Shown piece after piece: positions 30,029 through 52,428 of a stretch of 54,590 nucleotides of DNA. The notes beneath the pieces are model-generated. The model was not told where the DNA came from. It ran no database searches and saw only the letters and a list, made by a program, of their open reading frames with translations. The position numbers were made by a program, and so were the translations under genes. Every line of letters begins with the position of its first letter. Within the stretch, counting starts at the first letter, position 1. Origin of the DNA: a virus; the IMG/VR virus record IMGVR_UViG_3300006752_000035, positions 1 to 54,590 of that record. The stretch is one strand, 5' to 3'.

Positions 30029-33000
30029 TGTCTAGCTTGAACAATATAAACAATAACGCATCAGTAGTAAACGTAGGTCGAACAACACCAGTTACTCCAG
30101 GAGCACAACCTGCTGCTAAGAGTATTCCAGTTGTTGTTGCAACAGACCAAACAGCTATTCCTGTTGTAGAACAAAATAAAATACAATCAGAAGTTGCACT
30201 ATCATTACTTGGTATACCAAGGTCAGAAGTTGCACTAGGTATATTTGCTGACGTTAACACATACGATGTTAACCCAACAGAATGGTCCACAGAGCCAGCA
30301 GAGTATAGTGAGCTTTCACCTACACTTCCGCAATATACAGGTATAGGCGGAACGTTAGGTTGGGGTATTAAACACTTACCTGAGGAATCAGGTGCAATGG
30401 TTACTGCTCCACCAGATGAAACTGCTATCCTAACTTCTAAACGTTTTTTCCGTTATCAGCCAGGACGTGTTTCCGCTGCTACATTTGGTATTAAAAGTTC
30501 AAGCTACCAAGGTGAAGTATTAGGAACTGAACAACGTCCGCAAGTACGTAACCCAGGTGTAAACAAGTACGGTATTTTTGATAAGTTTGATGGTTACTAT
30601 TGGGAAACAAGCGACACAGGCCAAGGCGATCAATTCCGTGTTGTAAGACGTACACAGTCTATTATTAGAGTTAACCCACTTCCGTTTGGTAACCAAGCAG
30701 GTGAGCAGTTAGAAGATCATGCACTAGGTGGCAAGCCGCCAGCACAAGAAGCAAGTGATTACAACCAGTTTCCAACTGCTACAAAGTATTTGAATGAAAA
30801 TAGATTTGATCTTATTGCAAAGTCTGTTATACAAAACGAAGCAGTTAAATGTCATAGAGATGTTGGTTACTTCCTTGACGGTGCAGCATTTGACATTACA
30901 CTAGGAACAAATTATAACGCAGTATTCCAAGGTTTAGCAGAAGCAAACTCAAATGAGTATCAAGATGATAACACACTTCCAGTAGAAGTTACTACTGCAA
31001 TAACTAACACAAGAACAGAAGTAAAAGGACTTGACGATGTTAACACTGTTGGCGATGCAGCAGTTGATGTTTACTTTGATAAAATAGAAGCAATATGTGT
31101 TGATGCAGGTACAAAAGTAGACTATAGTTCAGCAACACAAACAGAACAAATAAACTTCTTAAAAGGTATTACATACACTAACCCAACTAGTGGCGCAACA
31201 GCAGGACAGATTGCAGCTAAAGATGCAATACTTGCTAACTTAGACTTCTTAACAGAAGAAGTAAACGTTTTCATTAATAACTATTATTCGTCGCACACAG
31301 GACAAATTGAAGCAAAGTGTGAAAGAGATGTATTGTTTGCTGTACAAGCAGTTGCATATGATATTTTATACGGCGGCAACAGTGCTACACATGATGCGGC
31401 ACGTTTCTTCTTTTACGATGGATTTGGAAAAAGTGATCAAACATTAGCAGTAACAGATCAAACAGTTTTAGCATACAAGCACTTGAAAGGTGTAATTGAC
31501 GATGTTATACTAGGACAAGCATATGCTCCGCAAGCACGTTGTACAAGAGATTTAGAATATATCCTAGAAGGTGTTGGATACGACATGACACTAGGCACAA
31601 ACTACCATGCTACATTCTTAGGACTAGCAGAGTCTAACAGTTCTGAATATCCAGAAGACAGTTCAGCAACAGTTAGTTCAGCAGACGGAAATGTTACAGC
31701 ACCGTGGGCTAGAGTTGTTGGTGCAATTAATGAAACAGAAACACAAGCAAAGCAACTAGTAGCACTTTCTGGAGGTAACGATCCAGCAGCAATTGCAGCA
31801 ATTGATACGTTCTATGATAATTTAAGAGCAATATCAGTTAATAACAACACAAGAGTTGAATACTATTCAACAACACAGCAAAAGCAAATTAATTTCTTAA
31901 AAGGTATTACATTTACAAATCCAACAAGTGGACGTACAGCAAGTCAACTAGCCGCTAAAGATAAGATTCAAGCAAACTACGACTTCTTAGCAGCAGAAAT
32001 TAATGCATGGGTAGCACAAGAGTATCCAAACTCAAAACACCCAGTTGCAAAATGTACACGTGACGTATTATTCATAGCAAACGCAGTTGCACATGATATG
32101 TGTTACGGTGGTAACTTTGCTACTGTAGAAGCAACAGAGTTCTTCTTCTACGAAGACTTTGCTCAAACATCAGACATACATAAAAATCAAACAGTTGCAG
32201 CATACGAAAGACTAGTAGAAATTATTGGTGATATTGTTGAAGGTACTGCAATTACACGCTCATTTGGTAATACCGAAGTACAAGTTACTTCAGGAACAGA
32301 TGCAGATATAGCAGAAGGAGCAGCAGTAGAAGCTCTTGTACAAATTGTTGTAGATGCTATTGATGCAGATAATGACACAGGCTTACCAGCAGTTGTTAAC
32401 CCAGATACGTCATGGGCGGATTCAGGATTAACAACTGCTAAGGGTTCAATTGATAGTGGCGCAAACGGCTTGGCGACAGCTGCAAGTACTAATGCATATG
32501 CTGGCTATACACAAAACAGTGAATCACAAAATACATCAAACACTGCTACTATTGCTGAAGCTAAAAAAGCAACAGACTTAATGGCAATCATACTAGGTGT
32601 TATCAAAGAAGGCGACATTATTAAGAGTTTGCCAGGTAACAGAGATGTACCAGACAGAAGCTGGAGAGGCGCAGGCGACTTAACTACGGCTGCTGATGCA
32701 ATTATAGAAGCAAAGCAAACAATACTTGACACAGTTGCTCCGATTACGTTATCTAGCACAGACGATGTTAAATGTTTGCGTGACTTAGAATTTGCAATAG
32801 ATGCATACATAGATGATTTAAGATGGGGCGGCAACGCACACACAATTACTAATGCTACTACATACCAGACTGCTGTACTTGCAGACGCAGAACGTGAAGG
32901 TGAAACACATTACTATTTCCGTTATGTACTAAGAGACGCTTTATATAAAATTGACGAGCAAGAAGCTAGAGATAAACTAGCAGAATTAGCAGGATATCAT

Positions 33001-35799
33001 ATACAAGCAACAACAGCAAATGGTACTCCAGGAAGTAAGTATCCTCCACAAGCAGGGCCAGACGGTACTACAGGTGCTATAACACAAGCACAGGTTGCAG
33101 CAGCAACTTACGGGCAGAAAGCTAAAATTGATACAATCTTTAGTGTATATAATAAGTATATGGGCTACTTAATTAGTCAAAGTTTAGTATATGATGCAGC
33201 AGACTATGTAAATGCAGAAAAAGGATTTTCATATGCAGATGCACAAGCATACGAAGATATTCTTAAGTTTAAGTGTTTACGTGATGTTAAGTATGTTGTA
33301 AATGGTTATGCTAGTGATTTACAGTACGGTGGTAATGCAGCAACAACTTACAATGCTAAAAAATATTACTCCGATGGAGAAATTAAAGTTTATTCACAAA
33401 CTAATGATAGTGGCGTAGTTGCAGAAGTTGACAGACACAAATACTTATTATGGTTGTTAACAGGACAGCAACCAGGTACAGTATTTTCTGGTAGTAATCC
33501 AACATTTACATTAGCTAACTATACGGACGTATGTACACTCTTTGGATTAAGCGATACACAGAAAACAAGAATTACAGACCTAGCAAAAATTATTGTTAAT
33601 AACTTTACAACTGAGTACACTGGCGCAGTAGAATTTGGCAGCGCAGGACAGTTTGGTGATTTAGTTATTTTACGTGACGGATTAATAATGGTTCACGGAG
33701 CAGTATATGATCCATCATTATTGAAGAAAAAGGTTAAGGCTGTCGCAAAACTAGATGTAGATAATAATGCTATTGCGTATGCAGGAGAAGCAGTTATTAT
33801 AGGTTCTTACGTAAACTACTATGGCGATTGCCCAGACTTAATTGATGGTAAGACATACTTTGTTGCAAATGTAACAGGACCTAAGGGAACTGTAATACAA
33901 TTAAGAGATCCAACAGTAGCAGGATTTAACGAGTTTGATGTTAATCCTGATGATGATGTTATTGATATTACAGCAACCGGCGATGGACCGCATTACATTG
34001 AAACTCCAGTTCCATTCATTGTACCAAAAGAATACGAAGATGTTGACCCGGCTTGGCCATTAGGTACTAGACGTTATGACGGTATGTTCCCATACTTGTA
34101 TACTGATACAGGAACATTGCCTGCAGATGCTAACTCTGTTACAGCAGGATTTATTGATACTGCTATTGATACAGTATCAGATCCGTCTAATCTAAGAACA
34201 CAAATTGACGCTATCAACTTTAAATATAAAACATGGTGTCGTGATAATGTAGATCCAACGTACTATTCAGTATACGAATACAGAGTAGGTAGAACACGTT
34301 TTAGTGGCGATGCTCTAGACGGATTGACACGTACAGCAGTTTACTCAGATAATGTACTTGACAAACGTGCAGGTTCTGTATTTAGAAACGGTGATGTAGC
34401 AGCAGAACAAACATCAGTTTGGGACTTTGACTTTAGTAAGGTTACCATGCTTAAAGTTGAATTTAGTTGGTATGGTGCTGTTGGTGCATTGTTCTTAGCA
34501 TATGTTCCAGTAGCTAACGGAGATGCACGTTGGGTAAGAGTACACCATTTACGTTGTTCAAATCAGTTGAAGATATCTTCATTAGGTAATGCTACACTTC
34601 CAATTACATATCTAGTATATGGTGGCGGAAGTGAAAATAGATTTGGAACTCCAAATGCAAACAGACTTGCTAACCCATACGGTGGCTATTCAGAGTTCCT
34701 TGTTAAGTATGGTGCTTCTTACTATATTGACGGTGGTGATAGAGGTACAGTAAGATTGTTTAATCATAGTTCAGATACACCAACTGACGTATACGGTTCA
34801 AAATATAGACTAGGTGTTGATAGTGCTAATGCTACTGATCCAGTATCACCTTACATTACAATTACAAACCTTGATCCAGACACTACAGGTAATGCATCAC
34901 CAGAAATAAGCACTTTTTATGTAGGCGCACAAATTATTACTGGTAACTCGCAAGACCAAAATGTTAAAGTTATTTGGATAGATCAAGCAACTAGCAAACT
35001 ATATTTAAATAAGCCAATTAGCCAAGTTAATGCACTCAGCATTATTGTTAATAGACCAGCATTAATATACGGATTAAAAACTAAAGACAACATTGTATCA
35101 GGTGATGGCGATGATGTACGTAACCGTGTACAGGTATATCCAACACGTTTAAGTGTCGGATCATCAGGTTCTGTAAATGCTAAACTAACATTATTAAAAA
35201 CACCAATATTCCAACCTAGTGTTCAAACAGTTGGAACAATAAGTGTTACAGCAGAATCAGATATAAATGTTAGCTATCAACTTCCAATAGACAATATAAC
35301 GTACTTAAAAGAAAACGGTAACTTTGTATATGGATGGTTCTTAGCAAGTCTTAATGGCAGTGAAACATTATTTAATGTGTTAGGTAGACTAGAAAAAGAA
35401 AATGACGCATATCATTTTTATCCAACAGAAATATATAACGGTACTTTGGTTATTGCTAGTGGCGCAACATTCTTAAAAGATGGAGTGTTTGATCCACAAG
35501 GTAATACACTACTTCCAAATGAAACTACATTTGAAAAAGAACGTTTAAGTTCTGTAGAAGTAGCACTTACATCACAAACACCAATTCCAGGAACTGGTAT
35601 ATCGTTAGCAAGTTACTATATTGCACCAGGTGCAGAAGAATTTGATTTAGCAACATATTTTGATTATAATAAGGAGTATATAAGTTATCCACTTACAGAC
35701 GAGATTGCAACGCTTTGGTTAGCAACATACAGTAGCCAAACAAATACTGCAAGTGAACAGGTTTCGTTAAGTGCCAGCTTTACATGGGAGGAGCAATAA
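30028..35799 (+). CDS. Large virion protein with tandem CxRD repeats (1923 aa)
   Basis: A 1923-residue structural protein. Its N- and C-terminal parts match the next protein (35803): LGIPRSEVALGIFADVNTY; RYQPGRVSAATFG; KVEFSWYGAVGALFLAYVPV; KYGASYYIDGGD. Inserted between them (about residues 270-1215) are repeats. Two long units begin CHRDVGYFLDGAAFD and CTRDLEYILEGVGYD (30850 and 31540, 230 residues apart). Each contains NFLKGITYTNPTSG-like and CERDVLFAVQAVAYD...YGGN blocks. Two shorter CLRD blocks follow near 32770 and 33280. The protein is probably a baseplate or fibre component enlarged by duplication. Function at residue level unknown. Confidence 0.85.
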   Translation: MSSLNNINNNASVVNVGRTTPVTPGAQPAAKSIPVVVATDQTAIPVVEQNKIQSEVALSLLGIPRSEVALGIFADVNTYDVNPTEWSTEPAEYSELSPTLPQYTGIGGTLGWGIKHLPEESGAMVTAPPDETAILTSKRFFRYQPGRVSAATFGIKSSSYQGEVLGTEQRPQVRNPGVNKYGIFDKFDGYYWETSDTGQGDQFRVVRRTQSIIRVNPLPFGNQAGEQLEDHALGGKPPAQEASDYNQFPTATKYLNENRFDLIAKSVIQNEAVKCHRDVGYFLDGAAFDITLGTNYNAVFQGLAEANSNEYQDDNTLPVEVTTAITNTRTEVKGLDDVNTVGDAAVDVYFDKIEAICVDAGTKVDYSSATQTEQINFLKGITYTNPTSGATAGQIAAKDAILANLDFLTEEVNVFINNYYSSHTGQIEAKCERDVLFAVQAVAYDILYGGNSATHDAARFFFYDGFGKSDQTLAVTDQTVLAYKHLKGVIDDVILGQAYAPQARCTRDLEYILEGVGYDMTLGTNYHATFLGLAESNSSEYPEDSSATVSSADGNVTAPWARVVGAINETETQAKQLVALSGGNDPAAIAAIDTFYDNLRAISVNNNTRVEYYSTTQQKQINFLKGITFTNPTSGRTASQLAAKDKIQANYDFLAAEINAWVAQEYPNSKHPVAKCTRDVLFIANAVAHDMCYGGNFATVEATEFFFYEDFAQTSDIHKNQTVAAYERLVEIIGDIVEGTAITRSFGNTEVQVTSGTDADIAEGAAVEALVQIVVDAIDADNDTGLPAVVNPDTSWADSGLTTAKGSIDSGANGLATAASTNAYAGYTQNSESQNTSNTATIAEAKKATDLMAIILGVIKEGDIIKSLPGNRDVPDRSWRGAGDLTTAADAIIEAKQTILDTVAPITLSSTDDVKCLRDLEFAIDAYIDDLRWGGNAHTITNATTYQTAVLADAEREGETHYYFRYVLRDALYKIDEQEARDKLAELAGYHIQATTANGTPGSKYPPQAGPDGTTGAITQAQVAAATYGQKAKIDTIFSVYNKYMGYLISQSLVYDAADYVNAEKGFSYADAQAYEDILKFKCLRDVKYVVNGYASDLQYGGNAATTYNAKKYYSDGEIKVYSQTNDSGVVAEVDRHKYLLWLLTGQQPGTVFSGSNPTFTLANYTDVCTLFGLSDTQKTRITDLAKIIVNNFTTEYTGAVEFGSAGQFGDLVILRDGLIMVHGAVYDPSLLKKKVKAVAKLDVDNNAIAYAGEAVIIGSYVNYYGDCPDLIDGKTYFVANVTGPKGTVIQLRDPTVAGFNEFDVNPDDDVIDITATGDGPHYIETPVPFIVPKEYEDVDPAWPLGTRRYDGMFPYLYTDTGTLPADANSVTAGFIDTAIDTVSDPSNLRTQIDAINFKYKTWCRDNVDPTYYSVYEYRVGRTRFSGDALDGLTRTAVYSDNVLDKRAGSVFRNGDVAAEQTSVWDFDFSKVTMLKVEFSWYGAVGALFLAYVPVANGDARWVRVHHLRCSNQLKISSLGNATLPITYLVYGGGSENRFGTPNANRLANPYGGYSEFLVKYGASYYIDGGDRGTVRLFNHSSDTPTDVYGSKYRLGVDSANATDPVSPYITITNLDPDTTGNASPEISTFYVGAQIITGNSQDQNVKVIWIDQATSKLYLNKPISQVNALSIIVNRPALIYGLKTKDNIVSGDGDDVRNRVQVYPTRLSVGSSGSVNAKLTLLKTPIFQPSVQTVGTISVTAESDINVSYQLPIDNITYLKENGNFVYGWFLASLNGSETLFNVLGRLEKENDAYHFYPTEIYNGTLVIASGATFLKDGVFDPQGNTLLPNETTFEKERLSSVEVALTSQTPIPGTGISLASYYIAPGAEEFDLATYFDYNKEYISYPLTDEIATLWLATYSSQTNTASEQVSLSASFTWEEQ
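30850..32270 (+). repeat. Tandem in-frame protein repeat (two units, ~230-245 codons)
   Basis: Unit 1 starts at the Cys codon at 30850 and unit 2 at 31540, 690 bases apart. Matching blocks are TLGTNYNAVFQGLAEANSNEY / TLGTNYHATFLGLAESNSSEY and CERDVLF / CTRDVLF (31318 and 32053). The protein is similar but the DNA has diverged, so the duplication is old. Confidence 0.75.
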
Positions 35800-35802
35800 T
35801 CC

Positions 35803-38800
35803 ATGCCTCAAATTAAGATAGGTCATGACATTATACCGATACCAACGGTTAAGACACTTGTTCCTCTTTACGATATTGTTCAAGGTGTTCCGTTACGAGA
35901 CAGTAACGGAAACATTCTTGTAACTGAAGAAGAAGGTCCGGTTGAAGCGTTATCCAAAGCAGAAAACTCGTTAAGTGTAGTTGTAAATAACGAAGCCGAA
36001 ACCACAGCGTTAGGTATTGAAGAAATATTTGCTGAAAGTTCAGAAGTTAGTACAACACTATTAGGCATACCAAGAGCCGAAGTTCAATTAAGTTTATTTT
36101 CAGATGTATCAACATACGGACGTAATCCAGAAGAATGGGAATTCTATCAGTTCAATGGCGTAAGTGGTAGGCCACCAGGTTGGTATAGACGTAATAATAG
36201 AATCTATGGAGATCACTATTACACACGTTTAGTTGAAAATATTAACGAGCAAGCTCTAACTATTGAAAGTTTTCCAGTAGCATATACTTCACCAAGTGGT
36301 CCAAAATTTCCTAACTATAATGTCCAGCAATGGAATAGATATGTAAAATTTATTGAACTAGGAAACATAATGTGGCAAGAGTTTATATCACAGTATCCAG
36401 ACTTCACTAAAGAAACTTTCTTAGATCCTACATTAGTTTACGAACAAGATAATGAAATTATGTATCCAGAAGATGATGAGCAACTTGGATATGATCTTGT
36501 AGAAACGTGGTGCCAGGCTTGGATGCAAATGCGAGACAGTTTGTTATTACATCCTGCTACAGGCAAGCCTATTAAATTTCCTAGTGGTTATGATGCAACA
36601 AATACTCGTCCGGGAGCAACTAGTACTAATAAGTATTACGGTCAATTAACAAGTAAAAAAGCATATCGATATCAGCCAGGGCGTATATCAGGATTTACAT
36701 ACGGATTCCGTTGTTCACGTGATGAAGCATCATTAGAAAACATTGTAGAATGGGGCATTGGTAATCCAACAGATCAATACGTATTTCAAATCAGAGGTCC
36801 ACAGTTTAACATTGTAAGAAGATCAACTGTAAGATTACCAGACGAAGTTTTAAGTAATATGGGTTTTCAACCCGAAGATCAAAAAGTTGTAGCATCTAGA
36901 GAACCGTTTGTTGATGATGAGTTTTTTGAATTAGTTATTCAACGAGAATTTTTTAATGGTGATCCATTAAACGGTAACGGCCTAAGTGGTTACTTACTTG
37001 ATCCAACTAAAGTTACTATGTATAAAATTGAATTTGGTTGGTATGGAGCAATTGGTGCTAAGTTTTATGCTTATGTTCCAGTACAAAATGGTGATGCACG
37101 TTGGGTACTTATTCATACAATAGTAATTGAAAATCAATTAGGCGAACCGTGCTTACAAGATCCTTACTTTAAATTTTTGTACTTACAAGATATAAATGAT
37201 ACTTCAAGTGTTAGAACACCGCAATACTTGTATAAGTATGGTGCTTCGTGTTACATTGATGGTGGCGACAACTCAGCTGGTAAGTTTTATACGTATTCTG
37301 CAGAAGATAAACCAGTTAACTCTGCAAGAGACAACAGTATTTTAGGAGTGTATCCTAAACAAGTTATTAAAAACTCAGACGGATATGAAAAACCTAATAA
37401 GAAAAATGTTTATCCTGTAGATTTAAAAGTTGATGCACAACAGCTAACACAATTAGAAGTTAGAGAAATTGACGGATGCCCGGGCTTTGGACATCATTAT
37501 TCACCAAGTTTAAAAGCAAAACAGTCTGGACAAATTAGAAGTATTAATATTGACTCGTCTGGACAAAACTTTACTATTAATCCACAAGACGCAGTAGCAA
37601 TAACAGGAATTACCAAAGACAGTTATGCAACAGTAACTACAGCAACAGCACATGGGTATTTCTCGCAACAAAAAGTTACTATTGAAAACGTAGTTGGAAT
37701 GACCGAAGTTAACGACTACGAGTTTTATGTATATGTGTTTAGCGATACTACATATGGTCTTTATACTGATTCTAACTTAACTATTCCAGTTGACAGTAGT
37801 TTATATGGCACATACGTAAGCGGCGGTGATTCATTAGGTAATCCTATACTTAGAGCTATTGACGATGATGCTAAACTCATCAACGAAGGTATTTGGAGTA
37901 CATATGTTAATGCACAAGGTGAAGACGGCGGAACATTCCAAAGACGAGGACTAGAAGGAACCTATATTAAATCACCAGATGTGCTTCCACAAGAAGTAAG
38001 AATTTACGGTGGCACCGAAGGTGTAGTTGAATTAACTACTGTTGACAAAACGGCAGTTAGATTTTCAACATATTATAATGCTATAGCCGGCGCAACATAT
38101 CCTATTACAGGTAATGCATTTGATGTTAACTATTTAAATCCTGTTAACAGAGAAAGTACAGGACAATGGTGCGAATATTTAATAGGTGTAACAGAGAAAA
38201 AACCAATATTAGTATCTGAACAAAATCCACAAGGTACTCCAATTGAAAAATTAAAATTCCAAAGAAAAGATGGAGTAACAAACGACGATCCAAATTTACA
38301 AGATGTATTGTTTATAGAATTTACCCACTCTTCTATATACCGAGATAGAGACGGTAATGAACAGGCAGAAGGCGATTCGCCAGCAGGTGTGAAATTAGAT
38401 CTTGATTATAGACTTCCAAGACCTGCAGGAGCAGATAGTGGCGTTTGTAGCGGAGTGTCTATTGTAATTGAAGATAGGCTTGCATATGATGTTGGCTATA
38501 CAACCGCAAATCCAATTACTGGTGCCACAGACGGGCATTATATTATTTGGGAAAGTGAGCCAAGTGCATTGCTAGGTAACTTTAGTCTTATAGGCGGCGA
38601 GTTTGGTATTGACGATACATCTAGTGGTTTGTTCTTTACAGGCGAAATAAACAGCTACATAGCAAACGTACAAAGTCAAGCATTAGCATACTATGCTCCA
38701 ATTACTGGTGATCCTCAAAGCGCATCATTTACATTAAAATTGAGTCCAATTAGAATTCAAGATAGAGCAACTACAGGTGACCCTGTTAAGAACGAAATTA

Positions 38801-39258
38801 AATTACAAATTTTTAGTTTCCAACCCAAGCCATTATATTGCACTATATGGCTACGAGATAATGCTGATGTAAATAACATTACTATCACAGAATATATTAA
38901 TAGCACTACTAGAGCGTTTAGTCCAGAGTGGCTTACTAACGACGGTGTTGATGTTGTTACATCTGGAAGCTCACTAACTAATGTGCCTGCTGCAAATTAT
39001 CTTGAAAAAGAAAGATTGGCTAGTACTAGTGTTGATATACAAAATGTTCAACCTTTGCGACCAGGTACACTAAAAGATACTATATATGTTGCTCCGAATA
39101 AAAGTAATTCGTTTAAACTTGATAGCGTTTATGGACCAGATAGAACAACCATTTCGCCAGGAGTGTTAAATACAACAGCAACTTTCGTTACAGCAAGAAG
39201 TTTAGAAAATAATGATGAAAATCTTGTAAGCGTAAGTATTACAACTAAGGAAGCATAA
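35803..39258 (+). CDS. Large virion protein, paralogue of the 1923-aa protein (1151 aa)
   Basis: A 1151-residue structural protein. It shares with its upstream neighbour the blocks LLGIPRAEVQLSLFSDVSTYG, KKAYRYQPGRISGFTYGF, TMYKIEFGWYGAIGAKFYAYVPV, NGDARWVLIH and KYGASCYIDGGD, but lacks the CxRD insertion. The two therefore represent a duplicated pair, one of which gained about 900 residues. The C-terminal third holds beta-rich segments. It starts four bases after the previous stop and is likely part of the same appendage or baseplate assembly. Confidence 0.83.
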   Translation: MPQIKIGHDIIPIPTVKTLVPLYDIVQGVPLRDSNGNILVTEEEGPVEALSKAENSLSVVVNNEAETTALGIEEIFAESSEVSTTLLGIPRAEVQLSLFSDVSTYGRNPEEWEFYQFNGVSGRPPGWYRRNNRIYGDHYYTRLVENINEQALTIESFPVAYTSPSGPKFPNYNVQQWNRYVKFIELGNIMWQEFISQYPDFTKETFLDPTLVYEQDNEIMYPEDDEQLGYDLVETWCQAWMQMRDSLLLHPATGKPIKFPSGYDATNTRPGATSTNKYYGQLTSKKAYRYQPGRISGFTYGFRCSRDEASLENIVEWGIGNPTDQYVFQIRGPQFNIVRRSTVRLPDEVLSNMGFQPEDQKVVASREPFVDDEFFELVIQREFFNGDPLNGNGLSGYLLDPTKVTMYKIEFGWYGAIGAKFYAYVPVQNGDARWVLIHTIVIENQLGEPCLQDPYFKFLYLQDINDTSSVRTPQYLYKYGASCYIDGGDNSAGKFYTYSAEDKPVNSARDNSILGVYPKQVIKNSDGYEKPNKKNVYPVDLKVDAQQLTQLEVREIDGCPGFGHHYSPSLKAKQSGQIRSINIDSSGQNFTINPQDAVAITGITKDSYATVTTATAHGYFSQQKVTIENVVGMTEVNDYEFYVYVFSDTTYGLYTDSNLTIPVDSSLYGTYVSGGDSLGNPILRAIDDDAKLINEGIWSTYVNAQGEDGGTFQRRGLEGTYIKSPDVLPQEVRIYGGTEGVVELTTVDKTAVRFSTYYNAIAGATYPITGNAFDVNYLNPVNRESTGQWCEYLIGVTEKKPILVSEQNPQGTPIEKLKFQRKDGVTNDDPNLQDVLFIEFTHSSIYRDRDGNEQAEGDSPAGVKLDLDYRLPRPAGADSGVCSGVSIVIEDRLAYDVGYTTANPITGATDGHYIIWESEPSALLGNFSLIGGEFGIDDTSSGLFFTGEINSYIANVQSQALAYYAPITGDPQSASFTLKLSPIRIQDRATTGDPVKNEIKLQIFSFQPKPLYCTIWLRDNADVNNITITEYINSTTRAFSPEWLTNDGVDVVTSGSSLTNVPAANYLEKERLASTSVDIQNVQPLRPGTLKDTIYVAPNKSNSFKLDSVYGPDRTTISPGVLNTTATFVTARSLENNDENLVSVSITTKEA

Positions 39259-39262
39259 ACAG

Positions 39263-42157
39263 ATGGCAATCCAAGGCGATTTAAAATTTGGTCTTAACGT
39301 AAACCGTAACTTAGCGGATGTAGTCAATAGTACCGAAGCACTATCAAATATTGGTGTAGACATAAAAGACTTAGATGTTATTCGTGACGCTGCTGGTACA
39401 TTAGGTATTACCTCAGACGATGTTAGAGCATTAAGCGGGTTGAATGTTTCTCTACAAACGTACTTAACTAAATTATACACTGATACGCAACAATATGCAA
39501 GTATTATTGAACAAACAGCAGGTACCACAGAACCACTAAAAGGAAACCTAACAATTAACGGACAGTTAGGTGCATCTAGTATTAAATATCAGTACATTGA
39601 TAATGAAGACGATACAACATTAAAATATGCAGATATTTCTACCAGTCGTATATCTAGTTGGAGCTCACCAGACAGTCCTAACTCTACTGAAATTAGTCCG
39701 ATTTTCTACGGTGGCGCAGTTGAAATAGACGGACCAGTAATAACAGGTGAAATTGAATTATTAGAACCTGCTATTGAAGTAAGATTTAGAGACTCAGAAG
39801 TACCAACACATAAAATTGAAGTAGAAGTTAACGGTAGTACTATATACTTTTATGCTATGAAAGGCATTCCGCTAGTATTCAAAGGATTCTTTAGAAACTT
39901 TAATAGTGATCTAAGACTAAATTCAGCAGGCGCAGTTAGTTGGAGAGTTGTAAATAATACAGCATCCTACTTAACTAGAGAATATGAAAACGTAGGCGGG
40001 TCAAATACAACTAGAAGTTATTTAAGATATCGTGATACTAGGGCATCTAGTAAAGATATTGAAATTTATCATAATCCAAATAACATTCGTACATTGCCGC
40101 TAAATGCAGTTGGAATAGAAAAATTACCTCTTGCAAGTTTAGAAGGTCTACAGTATCTATACATATATAGAAACTTAATTAAGACAATGCCAGACTTTAC
40201 TGTCTTTTCACCTAATCTGTTGTTACTAGATATACGTGAAAATAACTTAACATTAAGTGCAGACGCAAATTTAAGATCGTTTAATCAAGCAGTGGTTGAC
40301 AGCATTCCTAAGTCTGTAACTGAAATACGTTTTGGAAATACTTTTAATGGTTCTATAACAGGAAATCTTCGTCCAGATACTATTACTGACGGTAATCTTA
40401 TTTTAGGTAGACAATATACTGTAATAAGCATAAACGACGATCAAGGAGGAGCCGACTCTAATTTTGTAAATGTTGGCGCTGGTTCAAGTGCGTTATATCA
40501 AATATTTACAGCAACAGGTACAGATGCAGGCGGCACTGGAACTGTTGCAGATATGACAACAGGACTACCGAAACTAGTAACAATGAATTTAAATAGTCAT
40601 AGTAGAGGCGGCCCGAGAACATTCTTTGGTAGAGATAGTTTGGACCCAGATGGTAACTTACCTGAGGTACATATTACTTGTAAAAATTATTATGCATATA
40701 GAAATGCTTTTGATACGCTTCCTGAAAGTATAATGGCACTACCAAATTTAAGAATTATAAACATTTATGCTAATAGCATATCACAGGGAAATTTTAGAAT
40801 TGACAGTGACGATATAGACTATGTCAATATTGGTAATAATCAAAGTATTAATAATCCAAACCTAACAGGTAAAGAGAAGATAAGAAACTTTTATAATCAC
40901 TACAGTCGAGGAGAAGGGTTAGAGGACAACGGACTTCTGTATACACAAGCTGGTGATTATAAATTTACTAACTGTAGTAGTTTACAAAGAATTTATTGCT
41001 ATAGTAATAGATTTTACGGTCCAGTAAGTAAATTTAGCGGCAACAATGCTCTTTACCAATTTGAGTCACGTTATAGTCGTATAACAGGTGGCAGATTAAT
41101 TACTGCAAATCAAATGGAAGACGGCAAAGAGTATTATATCTGGTTCAATCCAGAACTTCAAACAGACGATATTATATTAAATCAATATTATGAAATTGTT
41201 GCAAACGATGATTTTGACTTTACAACATTAGGCGCACTTAATAATAATGTAGGAACAACATTTGAAGCTACGTCAATTACTGCTTCAGTCGCAGCAATTG
41301 CTAGAGTAAGATTAGATTTTACTTCAGTTGGTGCTACAACTAATGTTAAATATTCTACATTTACAGCAGACTTGACTAATAATTTTATTAATAATTCTTT
41401 TGCAAAAGTAGTAGACAAGCAATATGTACTATTTGACGATCTATTTGACGACTGTAAGGATACTATGCAATATTTTAGAATGAGTAGTTCTAGTTTATTC
41501 AATGCTCCATTACATCCTGATTTGTTTAGTAAAACATATAATATGCGTGGTATGGAAATACGTAGCTTCAACAGAGGAGTATCAGGTAATATTCCAAGTC
41601 TTGCATCAATGCAACGTTTAAGATACATTGTATTTTTACAGAATAACTTTACAGGACCAGTTCCGAGTTTGTTTAATAACCCTAGTGTTTATTATGTTCA
41701 TTTGTATCAAAATTTACTTACTGGCAGTGTGCCTCAAATTGAAAGTACTGAGCTAAGATATCTATACTTACATCGTAATCAATTAACTGGATTCAACGGG
41801 CTTAATTGTCCAAATATACTAAGAGTGTTTATAAGTTATAATCAAATAACTGGTAATGTGCCTGACATGAATAACTTAGAAAAATGTTATGACTTGTATA
41901 TGAATAATAACTTATTCAGTGGTTACACAGTCGGCGCAATTGTTGGTATGAGAGGATTGAGAAGATTAGATTTAAGTAATAATCCAACATTAACAGGACA
42001 ATCAGTAAATGACATTATTAGTGATGCTGTCCTAAATTATGAAAACAATCCAAGAGGCGGTGTGAGTATTAACTTAGCAAACACTGCAACAGTAACAGGC
42101 GAAGCTGTAGAACAATTGGAGTTCTTAAGAGCAGCTGGCTGGAATATAAGGAACTAA
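39263..42157 (+). CDS. Virion protein with leucine-rich repeats (964 aa)
   Basis: A 964-residue structural protein. The N-terminus (FGLNVNRNLADVVNSTEALSNIG) matches the docking region of the minus-strand 776-aa protein. The C-terminal part contains at least six leucine-rich repeats of the LxxLxLxxNxLTGxVP type: YIVFLQNNFTGPVP, YVHLYQNLLTGSVP, YLYLHRNQLTG, VFISYNQITGNVP, LYMNNNLFSG, LDLSNNPTLTG. More degenerate repeats are near residues 285-335. Two small GTT-type beta modules (about 378-435 and 636-690) interrupt it. LRR domains bind proteins or glycans, so a receptor-binding role is likely but inferred. Few phage fibres are known with this repeat. Confidence 0.85.
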   Translation: MAIQGDLKFGLNVNRNLADVVNSTEALSNIGVDIKDLDVIRDAAGTLGITSDDVRALSGLNVSLQTYLTKLYTDTQQYASIIEQTAGTTEPLKGNLTINGQLGASSIKYQYIDNEDDTTLKYADISTSRISSWSSPDSPNSTEISPIFYGGAVEIDGPVITGEIELLEPAIEVRFRDSEVPTHKIEVEVNGSTIYFYAMKGIPLVFKGFFRNFNSDLRLNSAGAVSWRVVNNTASYLTREYENVGGSNTTRSYLRYRDTRASSKDIEIYHNPNNIRTLPLNAVGIEKLPLASLEGLQYLYIYRNLIKTMPDFTVFSPNLLLLDIRENNLTLSADANLRSFNQAVVDSIPKSVTEIRFGNTFNGSITGNLRPDTITDGNLILGRQYTVISINDDQGGADSNFVNVGAGSSALYQIFTATGTDAGGTGTVADMTTGLPKLVTMNLNSHSRGGPRTFFGRDSLDPDGNLPEVHITCKNYYAYRNAFDTLPESIMALPNLRIINIYANSISQGNFRIDSDDIDYVNIGNNQSINNPNLTGKEKIRNFYNHYSRGEGLEDNGLLYTQAGDYKFTNCSSLQRIYCYSNRFYGPVSKFSGNNALYQFESRYSRITGGRLITANQMEDGKEYYIWFNPELQTDDIILNQYYEIVANDDFDFTTLGALNNNVGTTFEATSITASVAAIARVRLDFTSVGATTNVKYSTFTADLTNNFINNSFAKVVDKQYVLFDDLFDDCKDTMQYFRMSSSSLFNAPLHPDLFSKTYNMRGMEIRSFNRGVSGNIPSLASMQRLRYIVFLQNNFTGPVPSLFNNPSVYYVHLYQNLLTGSVPQIESTELRYLYLHRNQLTGFNGLNCPNILRVFISYNQITGNVPDMNNLEKCYDLYMNNNLFSGYTVGAIVGMRGLRRLDLSNNPTLTGQSVNDIISDAVLNYENNPRGGVSINLANTATVTGEAVEQLEFLRAAGWNIRN
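41609..42030 (+). repeat. Leucine-rich repeat block in the 964-aa protein
   Basis: Six consecutive repeats of about 20-24 residues with consensus LxxLxLxxNxLTGxVPx. This is the variant typical of plant and bacterial surface LRR proteins. Codons differ between repeats, so the array is old or under selection. Confidence 0.8.
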
Positions 42158-42158
42158 T

Positions 42159-43157
42159 ATGGCTGGTGCATTACAAGGGTTTGTTAGATCAGGAAACTTA
42201 ATTGAAAACACACAAGATAGATCGGCGCTAAACAACTTAGGCGAGGCGCCAATTGCTGATGATATTTCATTGTTTATTAACAATAACTCAAACGAATCAA
42301 TCTTAGAAATAAGTGCTAGTGAATACGATAGGATTAGCGGATTAGTTACTATTGTTAATACATCACAAGAATTAGCAAGACTACGAAGTGCAGTATTTAC
42401 TAATGCTGATCCAATACGTATTGAATATCTTGATGGTACAATTATTAAGCAAGCGTGTTTTGTTAGAGATAGTGACGGAGAAACACAGTTTGGATTTTCA
42501 AACAATGTTGAAGGCACTGACGATTTTACTTTTAGACCCGAAGCTGATTTTAGAGTTGTTCGATCAGATAAAGTTGTATTAGAAAACCTTACATTCTTAG
42601 GTGTAGAGCAATCTACCTCAAGTTTCAGCACTGGGTTAACTGATGGTAGTGGAGCAGATAGCGGGGGTGATTTTGGTATTACAGGTGATTATGCTTCAAA
42701 CTTTGAAGAAATTTATCAGTATCTTGATGTTGCGAAATACCAAGCAACAAGAAAATTTGTTAGCGATGAGGACGTTGCAACAGATGACAACTTTGAGCTA
42801 GAAGGTGTATTTACTATTAGAGATCCGGGCAATACTATTGTTGAAGAAGGTCTAAGTGCTGTAAGTCCGGGATTGTATATTACTAATCCGGAAAGTCCGT
42901 TATTTAATATTCAAAAGATCTTAGCATTCTCAGATACATTTAATCCTTGGGAGCAAGTTAATGACGGTACTTACGATTTACTACAGACTAGATCACTAAG
43001 TGTAACTGCCGGCGATTTAATACTCAATCAAGGTTTTGATGTACAGGGAGTTAGTACAATAAGTGCTACAGGTAATGTTGATAGTAATAACTTTACACAC
43101 AAAGTTCCGTTTAATCTAAACGGTGTAACATACTTCCTTTGTTTATCTAATACTTAA
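42159..43157 (+). CDS. Virion protein (332 aa), probable fibre-associated
   Basis: A 332-residue protein starting one base after the LRR gene. The N-terminus (GFVRSGNLIENTQDRSALNNLG) resembles the docking start of neighbouring virion proteins. The rest is Asp/Asn/Ser-rich beta structure with paired motifs (NPESPLFNIQ; GNVDSNNFTHKVPF). No enzyme motif. Its TAA and the stop of the convergent minus-strand gene overlap in a single TTAA palindrome (43154-43157). Confidence 0.72.
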   Translation: MAGALQGFVRSGNLIENTQDRSALNNLGEAPIADDISLFINNNSNESILEISASEYDRISGLVTIVNTSQELARLRSAVFTNADPIRIEYLDGTIIKQACFVRDSDGETQFGFSNNVEGTDDFTFRPEADFRVVRSDKVVLENLTFLGVEQSTSSFSTGLTDGSGADSGGDFGITGDYASNFEEIYQYLDVAKYQATRKFVSDEDVATDDNFELEGVFTIRDPGNTIVEEGLSAVSPGLYITNPESPLFNIQKILAFSDTFNPWEQVNDGTYDLLQTRSLSVTAGDLILNQGFDVQGVSTISATGNVDSNNFTHKVPFNLNGVTYFLCLSNT

Positions 43158-45484
43158 CTTCCATTAGTAGTACCTAAAATGTAAAACTGTGAATTCTGTA
43201 CTTTTACTGGAAATTTATCAGTGAAAGAAAATGTTCCTGAAGACGGAAGCTCTACAATATTGCTAGCCGATTGTACAGTAAAACTAAGTACCCTTAATAT
43301 AGGATCGTCATCATTTGGGTCAGTTGATCCAGCAAGTTTTAGACCTACTACTGAGCCGCCTCCGTCTGTTGTGCGCAGACCAGCTGGCGTTCCAATAAAC
43401 GGTGGTGCAGTATTTAACGGTATAACACACGCTTCTTTATTTTGTACAGTATTACTTGGACAAATTACAACTGTTGTACCAGCTACCATATCACCAATAG
43501 GATTACCATTAGCATCTGTTGAACGTATATTTTTACTTACTCTAATAGTATTAGCTGGATAGCCAGATGGATTTATTTCAGTAACAACTGTAAGTGTTCC
43601 AGGATCATATTGATCAACTGTTTCAATAAATGGACTACTTTGTATAACATTACCGATTCCTATATCGTCTACGTTATTAAGAGTTATATAGTCTTGTCCA
43701 CTTAGTGACGTAGCATTAACTTCTTTACCTATTACGCCTATACAATAATTATCAAGAGCATGATTACTTAAACCTACATCTCTATAGATATAGATTCTCT
43801 CAAGTGAGCTAATATTAAGATCAATGCTAGTTGTAAATTGTGTATTTCCTAATACCTCTGTTACACGTATGTAAACAGACCCACTATAAGTTTCTGTAAC
43901 AACAACATCGCCTACTCTTATATTAGCATTACTATTAACAGATACTGTATTGCCTGTACTTGTACAAAGATCACTTGCAGCATATCCTCGATGGTCAATA
44001 AATTTTATATCAAGAGAAGCATCTGATTCAGCCATATCTTTAACAATTACAATGCTATTCCTGGCAATATCAATAACTTCTGACACAGCGTCTGGTAAAC
44101 TATTAGCAAATACAATGTTTCCGATTTCAATATCATCAGTATACGGAGAAGTAGTAGATACCGATAGTACTTCACTATCTTCTAAAGTGCTATATCTATA
44201 CTCTGCTCTTAAGATATCAGCATAAACTAGTGGCGGTGTATAACGCATAGCAAGAGGAGAAATACTAGCAAACTCATTATACTGAGTACTGTTGATAGGA
44301 TCTTCAGGTCCTATTATTCCGCCGCCTGCTAATAGTCTTTTATCATAGAATCCTTTAAAACTATCGTCGGTATTAATCTCGCCAACTTCTGTATACAAAT
44401 ACCAGTATGGAAAACTGCCGCTGCCTGGTCTTTGTAGGGTTGATAAATTAGCATCCAACACTTTGTTAAAATAATTTGTTTCCTCACCGGGCCACCATAA
44501 CGTTATTCTAATTTTTCTTGGGACATACTTCTCTAGATTAGTTAATGGTATGGTTAATCTATATTCTTCGCCGCCTATATTTTCTGCGTTACTAAGGTCT
44601 AATCTTGAATCTTCAGGTAAAGTTACATTTTGATTTAAAAACATAGCATTACTGCCTGCGCTGTTGACATATAACCCTGCTTCAATTTCGGTTTGTAGTA
44701 TTGCTGCACCGTTGTTGTCGAACGCAGCAGTAACTTTGTCGCCGTTTGCTACAGTTTTCGCTTCTTGCCTAGTAAGGTTAACTCTATCATCATCACTAGT
44801 TCCGTCTGTTGCAAAAACTCTTCTTTCTTGTTTATACACATTTTTTTTAATTTCGTAAGTGCCTTCTGCATTTCCAAATTCAAGAATAAAAAGACCAGTT
44901 ACTCCGACATTAATTGTTGATGTACCGCTCGAGTCAGGTACATAAAAGCCCTCCCATTGTATAGCACCATTAGCACCATCTAGGCCTTCGTCTAGTTTGT
45001 TTGAAAATTCAAACAATCCAGTAGTCCAGTATTTCTTACGTACATTTGGGTTTCCAAATACTACATCTGATCCTCTAGAGTTGATATTTAAATTATCGTT
45101 AATTTGATCCCATTCATAAAAATCAGCAAATAGACCATCACCACCATTAAAGAACGGTGGATCACTAGTAGTAGCAGTAATAGTATCTAACTGATTCTTA
45201 ACTGTAATAAGAGGTATTGCTACTTCTTCTACAATTTCTGATGTTTCCGGATCTAGATATGCATTTTTTACTGCTAAGTTTGCCATCTTTCCTATATCAG
45301 CATTTGTTACTGTTGAATTTGCAATACCCTTAATAGCATCTAAATCTCCCCCACCGAAGGTCTGTCCTTCGTCAGTAACAACAAGGTTGTTAAGTAAGTT
45401 GTTTAATGCATCTTCAGGGTTATTTACGTCTGCAAGATTTAGGTCTCGTCTAAGCCCTATATTGTTAAATGATGGTCGTGCCAT
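43154..45484 (-). CDS. Virion protein on the minus strand, PA14-like segment (776 aa)
   Basis: A 776-residue structural protein encoded against the direction of all its virion neighbours. The N-terminus (NIGLRRDLNLADVNNPEDALNNLL) matches the LRR protein's start. Residues about 110-210 (GLFADFYEWDQ...GAIQWEGFYVPDSSG...VTGLFILEFGN) follow the order of a PA14-like carbohydrate-binding beta-barrel. Later parts are repeated beta segments. AGGAGAG precedes the ATG, and the palindromic late promoter at 45504 supplies a minus-strand start. It is intact and in good codon use, so the inversion looks functional. Confidence 0.8.
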   Translation of the reverse strand: MARPSFNNIGLRRDLNLADVNNPEDALNNLLNNLVVTDEGQTFGGGDLDAIKGIANSTVTNADIGKMANLAVKNAYLDPETSEIVEEVAIPLITVKNQLDTITATTSDPPFFNGGDGLFADFYEWDQINDNLNINSRGSDVVFGNPNVRKKYWTTGLFEFSNKLDEGLDGANGAIQWEGFYVPDSSGTSTINVGVTGLFILEFGNAEGTYEIKKNVYKQERRVFATDGTSDDDRVNLTRQEAKTVANGDKVTAAFDNNGAAILQTEIEAGLYVNSAGSNAMFLNQNVTLPEDSRLDLSNAENIGGEEYRLTIPLTNLEKYVPRKIRITLWWPGEETNYFNKVLDANLSTLQRPGSGSFPYWYLYTEVGEINTDDSFKGFYDKRLLAGGGIIGPEDPINSTQYNEFASISPLAMRYTPPLVYADILRAEYRYSTLEDSEVLSVSTTSPYTDDIEIGNIVFANSLPDAVSEVIDIARNSIVIVKDMAESDASLDIKFIDHRGYAASDLCTSTGNTVSVNSNANIRVGDVVVTETYSGSVYIRVTEVLGNTQFTTSIDLNISSLERIYIYRDVGLSNHALDNYCIGVIGKEVNATSLSGQDYITLNNVDDIGIGNVIQSSPFIETVDQYDPGTLTVVTEINPSGYPANTIRVSKNIRSTDANGNPIGDMVAGTTVVICPSNTVQNKEACVIPLNTAPPFIGTPAGLRTTDGGGSVVGLKLAGSTDPNDDDPILRVLSFTVQSASNIVELPSSGTFSFTDKFPVKVQNSQFYILGTTNGS

Positions 45485-45546: not shown

Positions 45547-46230
45547 ATGGCAATAGAATTAATTAACATTGGTAGAATAGCAAACGACGGTACTGGAGAC
45601 GATTTGCGTGAAGCCTTTACTAAAGTCAATCGTAGTTTAGAAGACCTAGATTTACGTATTGATGATAATACTGAAGGTTTAAATGTAGGCGCAGGCGCTG
45701 AAGTTTTTAAACGAAGAAATGGGTATGACTTAGAATTTAGAACTATTGTAAGTGGTGCTAATGCGGTAGTTACCGAAAATACTAATACAGTTACAGTAGC
45801 AGTTGATCCAACTCTTGCTGACAGAGATGTAATTGCAGATGCAGGCGCAATGACAGTACCTGCAAGGCAAGGTATTAGAGTTATGGGTGAACAGGGTATT
45901 ACAACATCAGTAGACCAAGCAAGTAATTCACTTTTAATATCAGGAAATGCTTCATTATCAACAGATACAAATCCTACGCTGACTTCGACACTAAACGGTA
46001 ACCAAAACGATATTGTAAATATTGATCTTATGACAGCAAATAATGTTGCTTCGTTAGTACATAATATTGATATTAGAGATCATGAAGGTTTTTTCGAAGA
46101 TTTTGATCTCGGAGAGGTAAGGGGAGCAGGCATTAGGTCATTCCTTGACTACTTTAGATATTATATTGATATCGAGTTTGGAACAGTAGATAACCCAATA
46201 GGGCCAGACTTAGACTTTGGCGCATTTTAA
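45547..46230 (+). CDS. Virion protein with shared docking N-terminus (227 aa)
   Basis: A 227-residue protein. IGRIANDGTGDDLREAFTKVNRSLEDLDLRI at the start (given here as the shared block) matches the N-terminus of the 3068-aa protein and, less closely, the protein at 49690. Such short forms look like a docking module with a small beta-rich body (FRTIVSGANAVVTENTNTV) and an acidic C-terminus. It is probably a short fibre or connector. AGGAAGAAG precedes the ATG. Confidence 0.75.
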   Translation: MAIELINIGRIANDGTGDDLREAFTKVNRSLEDLDLRIDDNTEGLNVGAGAEVFKRRNGYDLEFRTIVSGANAVVTENTNTVTVAVDPTLADRDVIADAGAMTVPARQGIRVMGEQGITTSVDQASNSLLISGNASLSTDTNPTLTSTLNGNQNDIVNIDLMTANNVASLVHNIDIRDHEGFFEDFDLGEVRGAGIRSFLDYFRYYIDIEFGTVDNPIGPDLDFGAF

Positions 46231-50546: not shown

Positions 50547-51077
50547 ATGCTTATGAAAACAGACGAACTCGGTATCCCACGATTTACAAATAAAGACTTA
50601 GTTGATATGATCTATTCAGGTCATGTTGACAAGTGTCATGTAGTATTGTGTGAACAATCAGACGATGTAGACAAGTTTAATGCTGTTATGGAAGAACAGG
50701 GTTTTGACACGCTACAGAAGTATATTCCATTAGATGTAGATCAAAAGACTTTTGACGGTGTATGTCAAAGTGAATGGTTTATGCCTGATGAATACAAAGA
50801 CATTAATGTATACAAATATGTACTAGGTAAAGCAGAAACACCCTGCCCACAACACGTACAAGATCGTATATGGGAAGAACTACAAGAATATAAAAAACGT
50901 GATATGCATAACTTATTACGCTATATGATCTATCTTGTAGACTTTATGCGTGAGAATGATATTGTTTGGGGAGTAGGCAGAGGATCAAGTGTTGCTAGTT
51001 ATGTACTATATTTAATAGGTGTACATAAGATAAATTCAATCCAGTTTGACCTGGATTGGCGTGAGTTCCTTAGATAA
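50547..51077 (+). CDS. DnaE-fragment protein (DNA polymerase III alpha-like, truncated)
   Basis: A 176-residue protein. The C-terminal 38 residues match the start of the bacterial DnaE palm: WGVGRGSSVASYVLYLIGVHK followed by FDLDWREFLR, like GPGRGSGAGSLVAYALxIT...FERFLN in E. coli DnaE (block shown in parts). The protein stops just before the catalytic PDFDxD aspartates, so it cannot be a polymerase by itself. The N-terminal 110 residues include TNKDLVDMIYSG and a Cys/His-containing section, and have a finger-like helical end. It may bind nucleotide or act as a decoy or accessory. The start may be 50547 or 50556. Confidence 0.7.
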   Translation: MLMKTDELGIPRFTNKDLVDMIYSGHVDKCHVVLCEQSDDVDKFNAVMEEQGFDTLQKYIPLDVDQKTFDGVCQSEWFMPDEYKDINVYKYVLGKAETPCPQHVQDRIWEELQEYKKRDMHNLLRYMIYLVDFMRENDIVWGVGRGSSVASYVLYLIGVHKINSIQFDLDWREFLR

Positions 51078-51080
51078 ATA
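51073..51080 (+). promoter_or_regulatory. Candidate late promoter (GATAAATA)
   Basis: TTAGATAAATACGTA overlaps the stop of the DnaE-like gene and nearly repeats the plus-strand half of the site at 45513. The leader has TTAGGAGAAT before the ATG at 51108. It would drive the 138-aa, co-chaperonin and MazG genes. Confidence 0.6.
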
Positions 51081-51107
51081 CGTACATAATTCATTAGGAG
51101 AATTAAT

Positions 51108-51524
51108 ATGGCACAAAAAATGAAAGGTCAAAAGACCTATACATCAATGCAAGGTAAGAAAATTGATATGGACTTACTACGCAAAAAGAACGAACTAACA
51201 CCAGCAGTAGGCAATGTCCGTGTAAACGCTCGTGGCGATGAACTAGGCGCAGGTGGAAAAATTATTAAAAAACGTGAAGACGTTGTTAAAGACTATTACA
51301 ACAATTCATCAAGACCCGTTGCAGACGAGCCAAGTCATTTAGAAACAGCAGTAGCAACTCCAGCACCAGTTGTTGCAGAAACTACAAAGACAAAAACAAG
51401 TTCTAAAAAGACATCAAAAGCTCAACAGAAAGTAGAAGCTACAGAGTTATCTAAAGAAGAACAAGAGATGTTCGACGAGTGGGTCGAAGATGAAGACGGC
51501 AACTTTGCAAAAAAGGATAGTTAA
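51108..51524 (+). CDS. Low-complexity, Lys/Thr-rich phage protein (138 aa)
   Basis: A 138-residue soluble protein. The N-terminal half (QKMKGQKTYTSMQGKKIDMDLL...VNARGDELGAGGKIIKKRE) is basic and is a pattern I associate with unnamed conserved proteins in marine T4-like phages. Residues about 80-115 are a disordered Ala/Thr/Pro/Lys linker. The C-terminus is acidic (EEQEMFDEWVEDEDGNF). TTAGGAG precedes the ATG. Because it is expressed from a late-type promoter next to the co-chaperonin, a capsid or assembly role is a reasonable guess. Confidence 0.6.
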   Translation: MAQKMKGQKTYTSMQGKKIDMDLLRKKNELTPAVGNVRVNARGDELGAGGKIIKKREDVVKDYYNNSSRPVADEPSHLETAVATPAPVVAETTKTKTSSKKTSKAQQKVEATELSKEEQEMFDEWVEDEDGNFAKKDS

Positions 51525-51529
51525 AAGAA

Positions 51530-51910
51530 ATGAAATCATTCGACGGTGATGCAAATCCTGTTGGCAATCGTGTATTCGTAAAAGAGATGCACTTTGGCGA
51601 ACAAAAAACGAAAAGTGGTCTAATTATTATGGACGACGATGGTAAAACTCGAGGCATTTATCCTCGATGGTCACAAGTACATGCTAAAGGACCTGAAAAC
51701 AATGACCCATATAATGTTGGTGATTGGATTTTAGTAGAGCATGGACGATGGACTCACGCATTTAAGGTCAACGATATTGAACTTAGAATGGCAGAAGCAG
51801 AAGCAGTAATTGGTTGGGCAGACGAACGTCCAAACAGTGTTCAAATTGGTGCAGAGTATGGCGATGGTGAACACGCTACTATTGACCCAAGTTCATTTAT
51901 TAATCAATAA
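51530..51910 (+). CDS. GroES-like co-chaperonin (T4 gp31-type role)
   Basis: A 126-residue GroES-fold protein. PVGNRVFVKEMHFGEQKTKSG is the first strand and the start of the mobile loop (about 23-40) that contacts GroEL. VHAKGP...YNVGDWILVEHGRW matches the conserved GxxVGDxVLxxxxxG region. The C-terminal extension of about 40 residues is not in host GroES. T4 gp31 replaces GroES so that the host GroEL can fold the major capsid protein. The same job is inferred here, and the late-type promoter at 51073 fits. Confidence 0.85.
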   Translation: MKSFDGDANPVGNRVFVKEMHFGEQKTKSGLIIMDDDGKTRGIYPRWSQVHAKGPENNDPYNVGDWILVEHGRWTHAFKVNDIELRMAEAEAVIGWADERPNSVQIGAEYGDGEHATIDPSSFINQ

Positions 51911-51919
51911 GAGGTAGAC

Positions 51920-52345: not shown

Positions 52346-52363
52346 AAAAACATTAAAAAACAC

Positions 52364-52392: not shown

Positions 52393-52428
52393 AATACAGT
52401 AAGTATAATATTAGGCAAGAGAGGCTTT

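What the first reader, a model, noticed from the sequence alone, without database searches (positions are those of the whole stretch)
39263..42157. Virion protein built on leucine-rich repeats
At least six LxxLxLxxNxLTGxVP repeats sit in the C-terminal half of a protein inside the tail/baseplate gene cluster, with an N-terminal docking block shared with a neighbour. LRR folds are common in eukaryotic and bacterial surface recognition but unusual in phage tail proteins. This could be a repeat-based, evolvable receptor-binding module.
Basis: partly seen in the sequence, partly recalled or inferred. Interest (0 to 1): 0.7.

Follow-up and report, generated by a model that had tools for sequence, protein, structure and literature searches.

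The report
Leucine-rich-repeat protein of phage tails
A gene in the tail region of an uncultured virus of bacteria makes a long, curved leucine-rich-repeat protein, the kind of scaffold that plants and animals use to recognise molecules, and the same gene sits at the same place in many related phages, including cultured cyanophages, so it looks like a standard, previously unrecognised part of this phage lineage rather than an oddity of one genome.

Summary
ORF 39263-42157 (964 aa) is predicted as a solenoid of about 20 leucine-rich repeats (LRRs) over aa ~271-964, mostly pLDDT >90, nearest plant LRR receptor ectodomains (Z 28.7) and Leptospira LRR proteins. Two low-confidence inserted modules (aa 365-428, 614-717) interrupt it. 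An N-terminal helical block is shared with the minus-strand neighbour (43154-45484).

It belongs to a family with 71 non-redundant members collected here, in a near-invariant gene neighbourhood. Cultured cyanophages S-TIM5, S-TIM54, S-TIM61 and S-TIM66 carry a remote full-length homologue (S-TIM5 gp118), annotated only as virion structural protein.

Inserts evolve fastest; C-terminal extensions differ in size.

Best reading: a constitutive tail or baseplate protein that docks by its N-terminus and displays an LRR solenoid as a binding surface, probably for the host surface. Receptor binding and virion presence are not shown here. Verdict: new variant of a known kind.

The parts
39263..42157 (+). 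LRR virion-cluster protein, 964 aa (whole gene)
   Evidence: ORF; Pfam LRR_8 7e-10 and LRR_4 1.5e-9; 71 non-redundant family members
39263..39517 (+). aa 1-85: N-terminal helical docking block, FGLNVxxxLADVxDxxxALxNLG type
   Evidence: Homologous to the N-terminus of the minus-strand ORF 43154-45484, hhalign E 3.4e-11; weaker likeness to ORF 42159-43157, E 1.2e-4, prob 55; predicted helices H23-29, H34-46, H51-57, H64-84. A docking role is inferred.
39518..39808 (+). aa 86-182: strongly conserved linker (LxGNLxxNG...ADISTSRVSSWSS), no confident fold
   Evidence: Invariant D124, S126-R129, S131, W133 in 56 sequences; pLDDT mostly below 60 up to aa ~160, 65-73 after
39809..40072 (+). aa 183-270: small beta-sandwich domain between docking block and solenoid
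   Evidence: pLDDT ~86-93 for aa 201-270; only weak fold matches, best Z 5.4
40073..40354 (+). LRR solenoid block 1, aa 271-364
   Evidence: AlphaFold2 strands at 275, 298, 321, 354, pLDDT ~85-95
40355..40546 (+). Insert 1, aa 365-428, absent from the 794-aa orthologues
   Evidence: Insertion of 62 aa relative to the 794-aa reference; pLDDT below 50 for 368-426; dN/dS 0.147
40547..41101 (+). LRR solenoid block 2, aa 429-613
   Evidence: Strands at 440, 475, 498, 520, 542, 576, 599, pLDDT mostly 72-97
41102..41413 (+). Insert 2, aa 614-717; its part aa 635-680 (41165-41302) resembles a segment of another virion protein
   Evidence: 103-aa insertion; module matches a different upstream virion ORF in relatives L020, L023, L033 etc., E 5.6e-5 to 5e-4; dN/dS 0.272, the highest in the gene
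41414..42154 (+). LRR solenoid block 3, aa 718-964, with the canonical LxxLxLxxNxLTGxVP repeats at aa 786, 809, 831, 852, 875
   Evidence: pLDDT 88-97; motif positions; PDB sequence matches to plant LRR receptor kinases
35803..39258 (+). Upstream neighbour (1151 aa), 'virion structural protein' phrog_1645; constant partner gene
   Evidence: PHROG E 8e-30; within 642 bp upstream of the LRR gene in 59 loci and upstream in 21 of 21 loci found independently of it
42159..43157 (+). Downstream neighbour (332 aa), syntenic in most relatives
43154..45484 (-). Minus-strand neighbour (776 aa) carrying the same N-terminal docking block at 45185-45484
   Evidence: hhalign E 3.4e-11; downstream in 22 of 22 independently found loci

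Best explanation
A constitutive tail/baseplate-associated protein of a large phage lineage, most of it known from metagenomic contigs. The N-terminal helical block anchors it to the virion, probably at the same kind of site as the minus-strand neighbour that has the same block. A conserved linker and a beta-sandwich follow. Then comes a rigid solenoid of about 20 leucine-rich repeats whose surface is the business end, most likely contacting the host cell surface (protein or glycan) during adsorption. Variation between phages is put mainly into modules inserted at two recurrent sites in the solenoid and into C-terminal extensions, while the repeat array is kept under purifying selection. Shown by computation: LRR family membership, predicted solenoid, shared block, synteny, conservation pattern. 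Inferred: presence in the virion, docking, orientation, and a host-surface ligand.
For: LRR fold: Pfam LRR_4 in 46 and LRR_8 in 45 of 47 members. AlphaFold2 model with LRR blocks mostly at pLDDT >90. VIA-align Z 28.7 with 513 residues aligned, rmsd 5.1, to the BRL2 ectodomain, and Z 27.2 with 335 residues, rmsd 3.9, to Leptospira LIC10831. Virion context: upstream neighbour is phrog_1645 'virion structural protein'. The order anchor - LRR - minus-strand gene holds also in loci found without using the anchor. Cultured homologue S-TIM5 gp118 is collinear (hhalign E 9.4e-19), sits between gp119 (anchor homologue) and gp117/gp116(-), and is annotated as virion structural protein. Docking: shared block. 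Display: in the divergent groups B, D and E the predicted concave positions vary more than the other repeat positions (p 0.04, 0.03, 1e-5), though not significantly in A and C. Inserts evolve fastest and sit at recurrent sites.
Against: No ligand, receptor or virion proteomics was available here. The S-TIM5 'virion structural' label could not be traced to its source paper. Concave positions are as conserved as framework leucines in the closest clade A (dN 0.046 vs 0.045), which does not look like an arms race. LRR divergence follows the neighbouring virion gene closely (r 0.98), as an internal structural part would. Between the window and its nearest relative the classical tail-fibre ORF 17266-26472 diverges more (66% identity over the part covered vs 80%), so it is the better candidate for the fast-evolving adhesin. 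The N-terminal third of the model is low confidence.
Confidence: 0.52

Rival explanations
1. Intra-virion scaffold: the LRR arc binds another tail or baseplate protein (for example the anchor product or a fibre) and has no direct contact with the host.
For: Constant synteny; LRR divergence co-varies with the anchor gene at r 0.98; strong purifying selection including concave positions within clade A; no fast-evolving tip.
Against: A solenoid that tolerates large insertions and C-terminal extensions of up to several hundred residues is more plastic than expected of a buried scaffold; concave positions are the most variable class in groups B, D and E.
Confidence: 0.32
2. Rapidly evolvable receptor-binding module driven by repeat gain and loss or targeted diversification (the strong form of the first reader's idea).
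For: LRRs in other organisms do evolve by repeat number (own knowledge); total length varies from 767 to 1641 aa across the family.
Against: No tandem or long direct DNA repeats; no repeat-number change in the 794-aa clade, and the large length differences come from inserts and C-terminal extensions; dN/dS 0.055-0.12 in LRR blocks; no reverse transcriptase in 27 records; no sign of wholesale tip exchange.
Confidence: 0.06
3. A non-virion protein made during infection (effector, chaperone or anti-defence) that happens to lie in the structural cluster.
For: LRRs are common in intracellular effectors (own knowledge); no direct proof of virion presence here.
Against: N-terminal block shared with a neighbouring tail-cluster ORF; a segment resembling insert 2 occurs in another virion protein; constant position among structural genes; S-TIM5 homologue annotated as virion structural.
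Confidence: 0.07

Closest known systems
Cyanophage S-TIM5 gp118 (YP_007006107.1) and its counterparts in S-TIM61, S-TIM66, S-TIM54
   Same: Full-length collinear homology (hhalign E 9.4e-19), same gene order, LRR Pfam hits
   Different: Only ~20% identity; repeats more degenerate; 1193-1217 aa; no LRR named in its annotation
Plant LRR receptor kinase ectodomains (BRL2, HAESA, BRI1)
   Same: Predicted fold (Z 24-29) and NxLTGxVP-type repeat consensus; BRI1-type receptors also carry an island inserted in the solenoid (own knowledge)
   Different: No kinase domain found; similarity is of the generic repeat, no evidence of common descent
Leptospira LRR proteins LIC10831/LIC11098 and Listeria internalins
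   Same: Bacterial LRR solenoids of similar predicted shape (Z 27.2, 25.2 and 23.2)
   Different: Cellular proteins without the phage N-terminal block
LRR-like tail-module ORF of vibriophages from coral mucus (PMC10945359)
   Same: LRR-like segment in a phage tail module
   Different: That case rests on a 10% hhpred probability and an LxxLxLxxN motif; here predicted fold, family and synteny all agree
LRR proteins of double-stranded DNA viruses (surveyed by Matsushima et al. 2021, cited in PMC10945359; not read here)
   Same: LRR proteins encoded by viruses, so the general kind is known
   Different: Could not check whether this family is in that survey

Membership tests
LRR superfamily | Tandem LxxLxLxxN/CxL highly conserved segment, above chance | tested here: met
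   4 strict matches vs shuffle mean 0.011, maximum 1 in 5000 shuffles
LRR superfamily | Scores over curated Pfam LRR cut-offs | tested here: met
   LRR_8 38.9 and LRR_4 38.2 bits, cut-off 27
LRR superfamily | Solenoid fold with one strand per 20-29 residues | tested here: met
   Predicted model only: ~20 strands, LRR blocks mostly pLDDT >90, Z 28.7 to a solved LRR ectodomain
S-TIM5 gp118 family (virion structural protein of Aurunvirus) | Collinear sequence homology | tested here: met
   hhalign E 9.4e-19, 758 columns; pairwise BLASTP alone gives only 1e-6; hmmsearch with the family profile did not detect the related S-TIM5-like freshwater ORFs of L084-L093
S-TIM5 gp118 family (virion structural protein of Aurunvirus) | Same gene neighbourhood | tested here: met
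   Homologues of ORFs 30028-35799 and 35803-39258 directly upstream, large minus-strand gene downstream
S-TIM5 gp118 family (virion structural protein of Aurunvirus) | Present in the virion | not testable with these tools
   Source paper not held
Phage receptor-binding protein | Binds the host receptor and is needed for adsorption | not testable with these tools
   No binding data
Phage receptor-binding protein | Faster evolution or exchange of the distal domain relative to virion core genes (common, not universal) | tested here: not met
   LRR distance tracks the anchor, r 0.98; mean distance 0.61 vs 0.58
Diversity-generating retroelement target | Reverse transcriptase in the genome | tested here: inconclusive
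   No RVT_1 match in 27 records, but the records are incomplete
Plant-type LRR receptor kinase | Kinase domain | tested here: not met
   Pfam finds only LRR-type families and FNIP

The most novel reading that the evidence does not exclude
A lineage-wide, constitutive phage tail protein that recognises the bacterial cell surface with a receptor-type LRR solenoid, the same scaffold that plants and animals use for pattern recognition, with specificity tuned by modules inserted at two recurrent sites rather than by repeat turnover.
Probability: 0.42. Interest if true: 0.8.

Novelty: new variant of a known kind. Interest (0 to 1): 0.56.

Why it matters
LRR solenoids are the archetypal recognition scaffold in plants and animals, while known phage receptor binders are mostly trimeric beta-structured fibres, Ig-like or C-type lectin domains (own knowledge). 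Here a full-length LRR protein is a constant part of the tail gene cluster in many phage contigs and in cultured cyanophages, where it carries no LRR annotation. Because S-TIM5 is cultured on Synechococcus WH 8102, its location and role can be tested directly.

Tried and rejected
tblastn of the window protein against INPHARED gave nothing at E 1e-3 and fragments at E 10 gave only weak hits; the Listeria records hit by LRR searches are unannotated and probably bacterial internalin fragments (inference). DGR: no reverse transcriptase in 27 records. DNA repeats inside the gene: none of note. Contig breaks: two of the nearest contigs end inside the gene and a third just after it, but judged by eye from the locus lengths breaks across the 79 loci are not concentrated there, so I do not read this as hypervariability. 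Host: psbA/psbD-type genes in 7 of 26 family records, none in the window's nearest clade; window core genes are nearest Pseudomonas jumbo phages of the Paride/PA5oct group, so the host of this phage is left open. The beta-domain aa 183-270 has only weak fold matches (best Z 5.4) and no family is claimed. Pfam and PHROGs gave no informative domain in the C-terminal extensions. Freshwater relatives L084-L093 have a positional counterpart with a similar N-terminus by eye but no detected family match; they are not counted. Papers: no report of an LRR virion family in cyanophages among the open-access papers searched.

Full report
Observation. ORF 39263-42157 (+, 964 aa) is an LRR protein. A strict LxxLxLxxNx(L)TG pattern occurs 4 times against 0.011 in shuffles, Pfam LRR_8 and LRR_4 pass their cut-offs, and PDB sequence searches return plant LRR receptor ectodomains for aa ~765-915, with a family profile reaching E 2.9e-98. 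AlphaFold2, using 47 family members and no templates, gives a solenoid of about 20 LRR strands from aa ~271 to 964, mostly at pLDDT >90. The exceptions are aa 368-426 and 630-697, below 50. VIA-align puts it at Z 28.7 (513 aligned, rmsd 5.1) to BRL2 and Z 27.2 (335 aligned, rmsd 3.9) to Leptospira LIC10831. Foldseek against predicted viral proteins finds mainly giant-virus LRR proteins and few tailed-phage ones.

Family. A scan of IMG/VR with the protein's own middle segment gave 12 relatives. A scan with the upstream neighbour gave 79 loci. In all loci held at that point 81 ORFs match the LRR protein (the window and duplicate loci included), 49 of them non-redundant. A scan with the family alignment found 132 encoding stretches, 80 of which were kept; with two hits in genome contigs it added 22 further members, for 71 in all. 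Those two hits, in MAGs labelled Opitutales and Cellulomonadaceae, lie on contigs that carry the phage tail cluster and are probably mis-binned phage DNA. Pfam LRR_4 is found in 46 of 47 members scanned.

Synteny. In 59 loci, the window included, the LRR gene starts within 642 bp downstream of the 'virion structural' anchor gene. That set was partly found through the anchor, so I repeated the check on the 22 members found through the LRR family itself: the anchor is upstream in 21 of 21 with upstream sequence and the minus-strand gene is downstream in 22 of 22.

Cultured relatives. The anchor hits S-TIM5-type cyanophages. In S-TIM5 the next gene, gp118 (1193 aa), aligns with the family along its length (hhalign E 9.4e-19, 20% identity) and has LRR Pfam hits, LRR_1 just over its cut-off. 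S-TIM61 and S-TIM66 carry it at 99.7% and S-TIM54 at 37%. All are annotated 'virion structural protein'; the experimental basis of that label could not be read here.

Anatomy. The helical N-terminal block (aa 1-85) is homologous to the N-terminus of the minus-strand neighbour 43154-45484 (hhalign E 3.4e-11) and less clearly to the 332-aa neighbour. A conserved linker and a beta-sandwich (aa 183-270, pLDDT ~90 in its core) follow, without a confident known fold. Orthologues of 794 aa lack both inserts. A segment of insert 2 resembles one in another virion ORF of relatives, E 5.6e-5 to 5e-4, which suggests an exchangeable module. Recurrent insertion sites correspond to window aa ~365 and ~614, and 14 of the 50 members compared have C-terminal extensions.

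Evolution. The LRR part diverges in step with the anchor gene (Pearson 0.98, Spearman 0.89; mean distance 0.61 vs 0.58). dN/dS between window and L003 is 0.07 (N-terminus), 0.07-0.12 (LRR blocks), 0.15 and 0.27 (inserts); dS is near saturation (pS ~0.6), so these ratios are rough. Concave positions are as constrained as the framework in the closest clade but are the most variable class in groups B, D and E; the position classes come from a motif, not from the model. There are no DNA tandem repeats and no reverse transcriptase was found.

Context. Nine matches join eight window proteins to Pseudomonas phage Paride (Arenbergviridae) in the 49 kb examined, including the protease and clamp loader, but none of the tail cluster does. 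Some family records carry photosystem genes (7 of 26) and the S-TIM5 group grows on Synechococcus, so some members infect cyanobacteria. The host of this phage is open.

Conclusion. The protein is most likely a constitutive tail/baseplate component displaying an LRR solenoid, probably for host contact (0.52), with an intra-virion scaffold as the main rival (0.32). The claim that it is evolvable through its repeats is not supported.

Noticed in passing
window 1570-2187, 7442-8752, 13450-13899, 50547-54590: Core genes (ClpP-like head protease, ligase, QueD-like, DNA polymerase part, clamp loader) match Pseudomonas jumbo phage Paride, and the protease and clamp loader are closest to that Paride/PA5oct group, while the tail cluster is related to cyanophage S-TIM5: apparently a mosaic of two phage groups.
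   Followed up: partly
window 31056-31476 and 31794-32205: Internal DNA repeat, 67% identical over 422 columns, inside the 1923-aa tail ORF.
   Followed up: no
window 30028-35799 and 35803-39258: Neighbouring virion genes share paralogous segments (up to 40% over 148 aa; a 100-bp stretch 79% identical).
   Followed up: no
window 17266-26472 and 45547-46230: Two ORFs share an N-terminal block (47% over 34 aa) that weakly resembles T4 gp9/10-type baseplate proteins, a second possible docking type in the same cluster.
   Followed up: no
L098 and L099: Contigs in MAGs labelled Opitutales and Cellulomonadaceae carry the phage tail cluster including the LRR gene: probable mis-binning.
   Followed up: yes
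L018:14937-17120, L016:14937-15386: Two of the nearest contigs end inside the LRR gene.
   Followed up: partly
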